A stretch of 64,000 nt of DNA from Sphaerochaeta globosa str. Buddy. GTDB lineage: Bacteria > Spirochaetota > Spirochaetia > Sphaerochaetales > Sphaerochaetaceae. The DNA lies in contig NC_015152.1 of NCBI RefSeq assembly GCF_000190435.1, positions 2,300,458-2,364,457 of the forward strand. The letters run 5' to 3'. Under the pieces are notes generated by a model. It was given only the letters and a program-made list of their open reading frames with translations, ran no database searches and was not told where the DNA came from. Positions 16,168 to 19,205 of this stretch are shown here, piece after piece. Position 1 is the first letter of the stretch. Each line of letters starts with the position of its first letter. The position numbers were made by a program, and so were the translations under genes.

Positions 16168-17226
16168 ATGAGAATGCGCATCGGATCCATGTTCACCCTC
16201 CAAGAGCCAAGTCAGTGTTCAAGTTCATACTTCACGGCCCTTGGAGCGGATGTTCAATCCTTCCTCTCGGGCCGATGCGCACTGTATGCCTGTTTGTTGG
16301 ATTGTGCCAACGCGAGCAGGCCAAAGCTTGCCTACGTTCCTGCCTATACGTGTGAGACGGTGCTTAGCAGCTACGAAAAGGCAGGCTACGCCCTGCGTTT
16401 CTACGATGTCGACCAAGCGGAACTCAAGCCAATTTTCAAGTATGAGGACCTAGCGGATGTCTCGGTACTGAACCTCTGCGGCTACTACGGGTTCAGCCGA
16501 TACGACAAGGCCTTCCTTGAGGTCTGCAGGCAGAATGGAATCACCATTATCCAGGACACCACCCATAGCCTTTTTTCTCAAGATGGACACTATCCCAATG
16601 CAGACTACTATGCAGGTAGTGTCCGAAAATGGCTGGGTATTGCCAGCGGCGGTGTAGCCGTCAAGAGAAAAGAAAGCTTTTCCGTTGAGCCCTTGAAAGC
16701 TGACGAAGAGCACCTGATGGGCCGCTATAAGGCGATGGAGTATCAAAAACTGGCCAATAAGTCGGGAAACGACACCTATGCCGAACAGGCCTCATCCATC
16801 TTCTGGGAAACGGAGATGCGCCTCAGGCACATGTTCGATGCCTTTGCAGGTGATGAGAAGTCCAAGACCATTCTCAACTCGCTCGATCCAACACACATGA
16901 TTGAGAAGCGTAGGGAAAACTACCAAACAGTTCTCAACGCACTCACACCCTCCCCGCAATGCCAGCCGATTTTCAAGAGCCTGGATGAGGCAACCTGCCC
17001 AAGTCACTTCACCTTCTATAGTGAAGACAGGCAGAGAGCCCAACAGCAATTGGAAAGGCAAAGCATCAAGAGCACAGTCTATTGGCCGCTGCCTCCGATG
17101 CTGACCAACAAGGAACAGTTTCCTCATGCCCTCTGGATTTATGACCATGTGATGAGCATTCAGATAGACCAGCGATACAGCAAAGAGGATATGGAGTACT
17201 TGGGTAAGGCGTTGGCTGGGTTGTAG
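16168..17226 (+). CDS. DegT/DnrJ/EryC1-like PLP-dependent aminotransferase fold protein
   Basis: Fold-type I PLP protein of 352 residues. Features shared with DegT aminotransferases are the YVPAYTCETVL start of the large domain, IIQDTTHSLFSQ around residue 130 (the Asp that contacts the PLP nitrogen), and GSVRKWLGIASGG around residue 155, whose Lys is the likely Schiff-base residue. The N-terminal part is divergent, and I cannot assign a substrate. The gene starts one base after the M42 stop codon, so it is the last member of the peptide operon; a role in amino-acid processing is inference. Confidence 0.72.
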   Translation: MRMRIGSMFTLQEPSQCSSSYFTALGADVQSFLSGRCALYACLLDCANASRPKLAYVPAYTCETVLSSYEKAGYALRFYDVDQAELKPIFKYEDLADVSVLNLCGYYGFSRYDKAFLEVCRQNGITIIQDTTHSLFSQDGHYPNADYYAGSVRKWLGIASGGVAVKRKESFSVEPLKADEEHLMGRYKAMEYQKLANKSGNDTYAEQASSIFWETEMRLRHMFDAFAGDEKSKTILNSLDPTHMIEKRRENYQTVLNALTPSPQCQPIFKSLDEATCPSHFTFYSEDRQRAQQQLERQSIKSTVYWPLPPMLTNKEQFPHALWIYDHVMSIQIDQRYSKEDMEYLGKALAGL

Positions 17227-17294: not shown

Positions 17295-17351
17295 TTGCAT
17301 TCTTGTTTGTTTATGGCTATAGTATAGCTGTATTAGTTCGTATTTTACGAA
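17295..17351 (+). promoter_or_regulatory. Promoter with operator dyad for the AAA-Toprim module
   Basis: TTGCAT (17295-17300) and TATAGT (17318-17323) are separated by exactly 17 bp. Just downstream of the expected +1 lies the perfect inverted repeat TTCGTA-TTT-TACGAA (17337-17351). AAGGAG and ATG 17370 follow. The layout suggests repression of the module by a dyad-binding protein. Confidence 0.7.
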
Positions 17352-17369
17352 ATAAACAAGGAGAGTTCT

Positions 17370-18476
17370 ATGATTGTCATGCGATTGAAGCTGGACAATG
17401 TGTTTGCTTTCAATAATTTTGAAATTATGCTGACTTACCCAAAAAAGATTGTGGGGTCCATAATTGAGCATGAAGTTCTTTCAGGTAGAAACAATTTCCG
17501 GTACAAAAAGCTGATAGTTCTTATGGGAGCTAATGCCTCAGGCAAAACAACCTTGGGAAAAGCTTTCATGGCCATTTTTAATAGCATCTATAATAAAAGC
17601 CTTATCCCGGTCTGTAATACTATCAATGACACATCCAAGAAAGCGTCATTTACCATCGAATTTGTGGCAAAAGCAAAGAGGCTCTATCGGGTGGAAGCCC
17701 TTATAAGCCCCCCAGTTACTCCCGGCTCGTATGATGAAGGTGATATGGAAGTTACAGTAAAGTCAGTTCCTATCGCTCTTTCAGATAGTTATGAGATGTG
17801 TGCCTCGAAACTGGACAACTTGATCGTTGAAAGAGAGTCATGCAGCAAAGCACTGGAATCTATTGAAAACTTCGGATGGCTTTTTACCTATCCAAGTATC
17901 GAAGAAAAAATACCTACCTTCCAGGAATTGGATAAGAATGGCTTGCTAGAAATTCTTAATATTGTTCTCTCTGTCTTGGACCCTTCTATTCAGGAAATTA
18001 TCAAGGCGAGGGATATTAAGAATTCTTATGTTATCAAGGTGGGTAATCATGATGTAATCATCCAAGATGGAAAAGTACTGAATGGAGAAATTCTCTCCAG
18101 CGGAACAAAATCTGGGATTGGAATCGCATCCATGTTGGCTGCCATTCTGGCAAAACAGAATGGTTTTTACTACTGCGATGAGAAATTCTCATATATACAC
18201 AGTGATATAGAACGAGAAATTCTTGCCAAAATGGTTGAAAAATTGGGAGAGGATGAACAGCTTTTCTTTACTACCCATACTACTGATATTTTGGATATGT
18301 CTTTTCCCAAACACTCATATTGTTTTCTAAAAAAGGAGCAGTTAGGGAAAACATGCACAATCCGTTGTATCAATGCTGATGACTTTCTCAAGCGAAATAC
18401 CGATTCACTTAAGCGTGCAGTTGAGAACGATCTCTTCTCAACATCCCCTGATGTGAGTCGCATTGCTACGTTGTGA
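17370..18476 (+). CDS. AAA family ATPase (OLD/ABC-like), putative defence ATPase
   Basis: A 368-residue ATPase of the SMC/OLD-like AAA_15/AAA_21 type. Walker A is GANASGKTT (about 53-61), the ABC-type signature region is SSGTKSGIGIA, Walker B is FYYCDEKF, and a switch motif FFTTHTTDILD follows. The long middle segment would be the lid or coiled insert. Such ATPases occur with Toprim nucleases in phage-defence modules (OLD, Gabija, PARIS). Here a Toprim-like gene starts 15 bp downstream. Base composition is clearly more AT-rich than the flanks, which suggests acquisition by transfer. Activity and target are unknown. Confidence 0.8.
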   Translation: MIVMRLKLDNVFAFNNFEIMLTYPKKIVGSIIEHEVLSGRNNFRYKKLIVLMGANASGKTTLGKAFMAIFNSIYNKSLIPVCNTINDTSKKASFTIEFVAKAKRLYRVEALISPPVTPGSYDEGDMEVTVKSVPIALSDSYEMCASKLDNLIVERESCSKALESIENFGWLFTYPSIEEKIPTFQELDKNGLLEILNIVLSVLDPSIQEIIKARDIKNSYVIKVGNHDVIIQDGKVLNGEILSSGTKSGIGIASMLAAILAKQNGFYYCDEKFSYIHSDIEREILAKMVEKLGEDEQLFFTTHTTDILDMSFPKHSYCFLKKEQLGKTCTIRCINADDFLKRNTDSLKRAVENDLFSTSPDVSRIATL

Positions 18477-18490
18477 AGTGAGGATATTTG

Positions 18491-19024
18491 ATGCAACACT
18501 ACTATCAATATTTTGTTGAAGGGGAAACCGAAGCAAAGCTGGTACAGGTCCTAAAGACTGATTTTAGATGCATCTGTGCAGGAAAAGTAAGAATTCATAC
18601 TGTAGTAGAGAAATTACTAACAAGAGGTTCTCTCTCATCGTTGCGGTTCAATACTACTGTAATTCTGATTTTTGATACTGACACCAATGATGCCACTCTC
18701 TTGCATGAAAATATTAAAATGCTGAATTCTCAGCCAATGATTAAGCGCGTACTTTGCATCCCTCAGGTAAAAAACCTTGAACAATAATTGATAAGAAGCT
18801 GCGGCCTCCATAGAATCAAAGAATTACTATCCAGCAAAGCAGACAAGGATTTCAAAACAGATTTTTGCAAGTGCAATGGATTAATAGGAGCATTGCAAAA
18901 CCATCATTTTGATTTCTCTCTATTCTGGGCTTCAACACCATCAGGGTCATTTACAGGAATTCCAAATAATTCCTCCAAGATAGCAATACCTTCAAATCAT
19001 GCAGGGAAGCTAGCTAAGAACTGA
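18491..19024 (+). pseudogene. Toprim-like protein gene interrupted by an in-frame TAA
   Basis: The frame from ATG 18491 (GAGGA six bases upstream) encodes about 98 residues, meets TAA at 18785-18787, and continues open in the same frame to TGA at 19024, for about 177 codons in total. The first part has the Toprim hallmarks: the acidic EGETEAK near the N-terminus and DTDTND at about residue 60. The second part (IKELLSSKADKDFKTDF, FDFSLFWAS) looks like the natural continuation. It is best read as one gene with a nonsense mutation, or less likely a read-through stop. It is paired with the upstream AAA ATPase. An active Toprim nuclease would need the full chain. Confidence 0.7.
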
Positions 19025-19086: not shown

Positions 19087-19120
19087 GCAAAACTCCCCTT
19101 CCCGTAAGGGAGGAGGAGTC
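19087..19120 (-). terminator. Terminator after tRNA-Phe
   Basis: On the minus strand GACTCC..CCC and GGG..GGGGAGT form an imperfect GC-rich stem around TTAC, followed by TTTTG. It lies about 15 bp past the tRNA 3' end. Confidence 0.7.
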
Positions 19121-19132
19121 TTCTCTGTTTAG

Positions 19133-19205
19133 TGCCGCCTCGCAGAATTGAACTGCGGACACAAGGATTTTCAGTCCTTTGCTCTACCAACTGAGCTAAA
19201 GCGGC
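19133..19205 (-). tRNA. tRNA-Phe (GAA)
   Basis: The minus strand folds as a cloverleaf: acceptor GCCGCTT/AGGCGGC with discriminator A, D arm GCTCAGTTGGTAGAGC, anticodon stem AAGGA/TCCTT with loop CTGAAAA (anticodon GAA), and T arm CGCAG-TTCAATT-CTGCG. CCA is not encoded. Confidence 0.97.

What the first reader, a model, noticed from the sequence alone, without database searches (positions are those of the whole stretch)
17370..19024. Candidate two-gene ATPase-Toprim defence module with a nonsense-broken effector
An OLD/ABC-like AAA ATPase is followed by a small protein with Toprim acidic motifs (EGETEAK and DTDTND). Split ATPase plus Toprim pairs are known from PARIS and Gabija-like systems, but the Toprim protein here (about 177 codons) is much shorter than AriB or GajA domains. 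An in-frame TAA at 18785 interrupts it while the remaining 78 codons stay open with normal protein character. The patch is AT-rich, next to a tRNA gene and behind its own repressible promoter. The loss of the effector with the ATPase intact suggests toxicity or loss of selection.
Basis: partly seen in the sequence, partly recalled or inferred. Interest (0 to 1): 0.72.

Follow-up and report, generated by a model that had tools for sequence, protein, structure and literature searches.

The report
Phage-defence gene pair with broken nuclease
A Sphaerochaeta-like genome carries a two-gene AbiL-like phage-defence module whose nuclease gene is cut short by a stop codon; relatives in the genus have broken it repeatedly in different ways while keeping the partner ATPase, and the module carries its own palindromic control site that is conserved across bacterial phyla.

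Summary
Confirmed and extended. The pair is real: a Rad50-like ATPase (368 aa; best PADLOC match AbiLi, E 2e-28) and a Toprim gene with an in-frame TAA at 18785. 43 intact relatives read through the stop position and homology continues to the end of the frame, so the stop is a lesion. The intact Toprim is predicted with confidence (pLDDT 95), nearest to OLD/GajA Toprims, and its invariant residues match the OLD active site; the stop removes two of them (E99, K124). In Sphaerochaeta, 5 of 6 loci with a full ATPase have a broken Toprim (nonsense, repeat insertion, tail loss); 24 of 25 phage/plasmid copies are intact. Lesions look recent. New: a dyad, TTC-N9-GAA, lies upstream of the ATPase in 65 of 74 non-redundant loci (shuffles 1.2; control ORFs 2%), from spirochaetes to Acinetobacter phages; its extended form occurs once in the window's 3.3-Mb genome, here. 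No third gene is shared. Best reading: an AbiL-like ATPase-sensor/Toprim-nuclease module with a module-specific operator, its costly nuclease recently switched off. Operator function, autoregulation and toxicity of this protein are inferred, not shown.

The parts
17318..17323 (+). -10-like hexamer TATAGT
   Evidence: best -10 candidate, 13 nt before the dyad core; weak on its own (one search found no excess of promoter-like sites).
17333..17355 (+). Conserved dyad TTAG-TTC-GTATTTTAC-GAA-ATAA, a probable operator of the module (core 17337-17351)
   Evidence: TTC-N9-GAA in 65 of 74 non-redundant ATPase upstream regions; only occurrence of the extended palindrome in the 3.3-Mb genome; paired changes at symmetric positions.
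17370..18476 (+). AbiLi-like AAA/SMC-type ATPase, 368 aa, intact (Walker A GANASGKT)
   Evidence: PADLOC AbiLi E 2e-28; Pfam AAA_21 E 1e-7; AlphaFold pLDDT 89, VIA Z up to 19.9 to Rad50 and 17.5 to PtuA.
18491..18787 (+). Toprim nuclease gene, first 98 codons and the premature TAA (18785-18787)
   Evidence: the stop lies in the column of invariant E99; the product would lack E99 and K124.
18788..19024 (+). Rest of the Toprim frame, 78 open codons, still homologous to intact relatives
19093..19112 (-). Terminator-like hairpin next to the tRNA-Phe gene; shared by relatives that lack the module
19132..19205 (-). tRNA-Phe (GAA) bordering the insertion slot

Best explanation
The locus is a horizontally mobile, AbiL-like two-gene defence module: a dyad operator, an SMC/Rad50-type ATPase (sensor and gatekeeper, inferred) and an OLD-type two-metal Toprim nuclease (effector, inferred from fold and active-site residues). 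By analogy with PARIS, the ATPase would hold or license the Toprim nuclease until a phage trigger appears; the nuclease would then cut nucleic acid (target unknown) and stop the cell. The module sits in a variable slot beside tRNA-Phe. The nuclease is costly and has been inactivated independently several times in Sphaerochaeta, here by a stop that removes part of the predicted metal-B site and the catalytic lysine, so the window's copy is most likely an ATPase with no working effector. The dyad overlaps or closely follows the transcription start and most likely serves as a module-specific repressor site, perhaps bound by a module protein.
For: ATPase: AbiLi profile E 2e-28, also the best hit for all four relatives tested. 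Toprim: AF2 pLDDT 95; VIA matches Bp OLD Z 7.1 over 144 residues, GajA Z 6.3 over 146, retron Eco2 Z 5.3 over 139. Residue map: invariant E10, D62, D64, E97, E99, K124 and near-invariant E14 against Bp OLD E400/D455/D457, E404/T506/E508, K562 (PMC7049728). Lesions. In 423 genomes searched with both genes: 7 effector-only lesions, 0 ATPase-only, 3 both; length-weighted p 3e-4. Mobility: phages NatCom_17901 and Ab105-3phi and an Acinetobacter plasmid; empty site in G013, another gene in the slot in G005. Dyad. Two genes only: no conserved third gene in 85 loci. Toxic AbiLii homologue: PMC3985639.
Against: VIA Z values for the Toprim are below 8, so the fold match alone is modest; the assignment rests on fold plus residue pattern. 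Intact Toprims match the AbiLii profile only weakly (E 0.014-0.029). The S. halotolerans and G012 truncations (about codon 144) keep all catalytic residues, and dN/dS over codons 1-144 between them is 0.07, so those two may still be functional. No evidence shows the ATPase being selected on its own after effector loss. The protein that binds the dyad is unknown. Defence was not tested.
Confidence: 0.72

Rival explanations
1. The truncated 98-aa protein is still made and has a new role, for example as a non-catalytic regulator or binding partner of the ATPase; the break was selected.
For: Metal-A residues E10, D62, D64 and the first strands are kept; ATPase and dyad are intact; truncated copies in two related species (L006, L061) show dN/dS 0.07.
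Against: Lesions in the genus fall at different places (codons 7/28, 99, 109, about 144) and are of different kinds, which fits loss of function; the window's codons after the stop have not diverged faster than the rest, so the stop is young.
Confidence: 0.15
2. Simple decay: the whole module is on its way out and the Toprim was hit first by chance.
For: Both-broken loci exist (G381, G181) and an ATPase remnant with a decaying dyad in G015.
Against: Effector-only lesions outnumber ATPase-only lesions 7 to 0 in the two-way survey and 14 to 1 overall although the ATPase is twice as long; the 14:1 figure is partly biased because one search was seeded on the ATPase.
Confidence: 0.13
3. The stop is a sequencing or assembly error.
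For: Reads were not available.
Against: Single-contig genome; independent lesions in other genomes, including the isolate S. halotolerans 4-11; repeat insertions of 155 bp are not base-call errors.
Confidence: 0.04
4. The dyad acts as an RNA hairpin (7-nt loop) controlling translation or serving as a target of the Toprim nuclease, not as a DNA operator.
For: Pairs at +/-4, +/-3 and +/-10 covary (41 of 49 Watson-Crick at +/-4 against 17.6 expected); the loop is A-rich on one strand; in Acinetobacter-type loci the ribosome-binding site lies in the repeat.
Against: No excess of G-U over A-C pairs (4 against 3 at +/-4); in about six loci the -10 box ends 2-3 nt before the core, so transcription would start inside the dyad and no full hairpin would form.
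Confidence: 0.3

Closest known systems
AbiL (abiLi/abiLii, Lactococcus lactis; toxic AbiLii of Fusobacterium nucleatum)
   Same: Two genes, ATPase then small Toprim-type protein; the ATPase matches the AbiLi profile (E 2e-28); AbiL is listed among ATPase-Toprim defence systems in PMC12409363.
   Different: ATPase aligned to about 240 of the 326 profile positions; the Toprim barely matches the AbiLii profile; effector broken in this genome; the conserved dyad is not described in the papers found here.
PARIS (AriA/AriB)
   Same: Separate ATPase and Toprim genes; probable sensor-effector logic.
   Different: AriA profile match far weaker (E 5e-8) than AbiLi; no AriB match; Toprim of about 170 aa.
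OLD nucleases and Gabija GajA
   Same: SMC/Rad50-like ATPase plus Toprim with the metal-A, metal-B and lysine pattern.
   Different: Here the two domains are separate genes, and there is no helicase partner or other conserved third gene.
Septu/retron PtuA ATPases
   Same: ATPase fold (VIA Z about 17).
   Different: Partner is a Toprim, not the HNH protein PtuB.

Membership tests
AbiL | AbiLi-type ATPase | tested here: met
   PDLC02335 E 2e-28, 97 bits; same best hit in four relatives.
AbiL | AbiLii-type protein encoded next to it | tested here: inconclusive
   Window pieces: no hit; intact relatives: E 0.014 and 0.029 to PDLC02337, others none.
AbiL | Confers abortive phage resistance | not testable with these tools
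   Needs experiment.
PARIS | AriA-type ATPase | tested here: inconclusive
   AriA models E 5e-8 and weaker, about 66 bits below AbiLi.
PARIS | AriB-type Toprim | tested here: not met
   No AriB or Pfam Toprim match for intact relatives.
OLD/Gabija | ATPase and Toprim in one polypeptide | tested here: not met
   Separate genes in the loci examined.
OLD/Gabija | Two-metal Toprim residue set E, E, D-D, (T/S/E)-E, K | tested here: met
   Family alignment against PMC7049728, by order and spacing, not by superposition; in the window's own product E99 and K124 are lost.
OLD/Gabija | GajB-type helicase next to it (Gabija only) | tested here: not met
   No conserved third gene.

The most novel reading that the evidence does not exclude
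The ATPase-Toprim pair represses itself at a dedicated dyad without any recognisable DNA-binding domain: an SMC-type ATPase or its Toprim partner reads the TTC-N9-GAA operator, so sensing phage would both free the nuclease and derepress the operon. The site has travelled with the module between phyla.
Probability: 0.35. Interest if true: 0.68.

Novelty: new variant of a known kind. Interest (0 to 1): 0.52.

Why it matters
It gives a natural series of effector-off alleles of an AbiL-like system in one genus, useful for asking what the ATPase does alone and why effectors are lost on chromosomes but kept in phages. The cross-phylum operator is a concrete handle on how ATPase-Toprim defence is kept silent, and could help to find more such systems by sequence pattern.

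Tried and rejected
Stop codon recoding or programmed readthrough: rejected; lesions in relatives differ in kind and position. Orthologues ending at the same stop: none. Divergence of broken Toprims compared with intact ones: no excess, so lesions are recent and no relaxed-selection signal can be drawn. Foldseek alone on the Toprim gave no significant hit; VIA was needed. Sequence search of the PDB found nothing useful for either gene. Plasmid searches with two distant ATPases returned only one Acinetobacter plasmid. A shared third gene: none. Pfam and NCBIfam have no model for the Toprim. One search failed on a script error and was rerun; one search was a mistake (a pair count on a protein alignment). 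Literature on AbiL regulation and effector loss: nothing found that describes the dyad; the library lacks most subscription papers, including the original AbiL paper.

Full report
Observation. The window lies in a single-contig 3.316-Mb genome whose nearest relatives for this locus are Sphaerochaeta. The ATPase ORF is 17370-18476. Fourteen bases later the Toprim frame starts at ATG 18491; it stops at TAA 18785-18787 and is then open for 78 codons to 19024. All statements of the finding about coordinates and motifs hold.

Is the stop a lesion? The ATPase has 56 relatives in genome contigs and more in virus contigs. Most are followed, within about 30 bases or with a short overlap, by a Toprim gene of about 165-178 codons. 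43 intact copies align over the full length. Homology of the window's frame continues through the stop to codon 164, and dN to L004 is the same before and after it. Hence the stop is a real interruption and a recent one.

What the Toprim is. No Pfam model matches. AlphaFold on the intact L004 protein with 43 sequences gives pLDDT 95 and pTM 0.90. The best structural matches are the OLD Toprim of Burkholderia pseudomallei (Z 7.1, 4.2 A, 144 residues), small Toprim proteins (Z 7.0), other OLD proteins, GajA (Z 6.3, 146 residues) and further down retron Eco2. Those Z values are modest, but the invariant residues E10, D62, D64, E97, E99, K124 and the near-invariant E14 repeat the order and spacing of the OLD active site: metal A E400/D455/D457, metal B E404/T506/E508, and K562 (PMC7049728). 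The assignment of E97/E99 and K124 to those positions is my inference from spacing and order; I did not superpose them. The window's product would keep the metal-A residues and E97, and lose E99 and K124.

What the ATPase is. AAA_21 in Pfam and AbiLi in PADLOC at E 2e-28, far better than AriA, PtuA or MADS models. The model (pLDDT 89) resembles Rad50, SMC heads and PtuA.

Recurrent loss of the effector. In Sphaerochaeta, six loci hold a full ATPase. One Toprim is intact (L004/G006). The others: the window, nonsense at codon 99; S. halotolerans (L006/G003), nonsense at about codon 144; G012 (L061), ends at about codon 144 with an unrelated tail; L005/G016, a stop after codon 6 and a 155-bp insertion at about codon 28; L003, an insertion at about codon 109. 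The two insertions are the same repeat family in opposite orientation, 75% identical; L005's copy has more than 30 relatives in each of three genomes and none in the window's genome. Outside the genus about 9 of about 60 chromosomal loci have a broken or missing Toprim. Among distinct phage, virus-contig and plasmid loci 24 of 25 are intact. In the genomes searched with both genes (26 Sphaerochaeta, 397 Lachnospiraceae) there are 7 effector-only lesions, 3 double lesions and no ATPase-only lesion. One ATPase-only lesion, L044, is known from the larger set. If lesions fell at random by length, 7 of 7 in the Toprim has probability 3e-4. Loci are related by descent, so this is a rough figure.

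Limits of that result. The S. halotolerans and G012 copies keep all catalytic residues, and dN/dS between them is 0.07 for the Toprim and 0.06 for the ATPase; these two may still work or may be very young truncations. I found no sign that the ATPase is under selection by itself.

The palindrome. Upstream of the ATPase, TTC-N9-GAA occurs in 65 of 74 non-redundant loci, at exactly that spacing; dinucleotide shuffles give 1.2 on average (at most 5 in any of 200 rounds) and upstream regions of 425 other ORFs in the same loci give 2%. Most of the nine others carry a near copy or another inverted repeat in the same place. The element often extends to ATTANTTC..GAANTAAT. It is found in Spirochaetota, in Bacillota and in Acinetobacter and other phages whose ATPases are only about 30% identical. 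The extended pattern occurs once in the window's genome, at this operon. Symmetric positions covary. In several loci the -10 box ends 2-3 nt before the core, which favours a DNA operator over an RNA hairpin, but the loop is A-rich on one strand and in Acinetobacter-type loci the ribosome-binding site lies within the repeat, so the question is open. No third gene is shared among 85 loci, so if the binding protein travels with the module it must be the ATPase, the Toprim or both. That step is inference.

Setting. The module occupies a slot between an aminotransferase-like gene (16168-17226) and tRNA-Phe. G013 has the two flanks about 200 bp apart with no module; G005 has an unrelated gene there; S. 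halotolerans has the module beside the same tRNA-Phe. Elsewhere it is cargo in phages, between portal and terminase genes in NatCom_17901 and in Ab105-3phi, and on an Acinetobacter plasmid. This is the usual distribution of defence genes (general knowledge).

How it probably works. By analogy with PARIS, where AriA holds AriB and releases it on a phage trigger (PMC12409363), the ATPase would sense and gate, and the Toprim would cut a nucleic acid target. F. nucleatum AbiLii slows growth of E. coli and AbiLi did not counteract it (PMC3985639), which fits a costly effector. Shown here: gene structure, homology, predicted fold, residue pattern, lesions, dyad conservation. Inferred: nuclease activity, gating, operator function, toxicity as the reason for loss.

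Verdict. The finding is right and richer than stated. As a system it is an AbiL-like variant; the dyad and the repeated effector loss are the new parts.

Noticed in passing
L190:2783-4465 (G359, Lachnospiraceae): Next to the orphan ATPase stands a second, different ATPase gene followed by a 172-aa protein with EGSAEEAI and LDSRREE motifs, possibly another ATPase-Toprim pair; its upstream also has an inverted repeat with a 7-nt loop (AAAAACG-AAAAAGC-CGTTTTT).
   Followed up: no
L005:5198-5352 and L003:5448-5605: A repeat of about 155 bp, mobile in Sphaerochaeta (more than 30 copies in G016, G003 and G021, absent from the window's genome), has inserted into the Toprim gene of two species.
   Followed up: partly
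L061 (about 1045, minus strand) and L006:5555-5557: Two related species end their Toprim within two codons of each other (about codon 144) by different sequence changes; coincidence or shared history is unclear.
   Followed up: no
L110:5600-6760: In G005 the slot beside tRNA-Phe holds an unrelated gene, probably a secreted protein.
   Followed up: no
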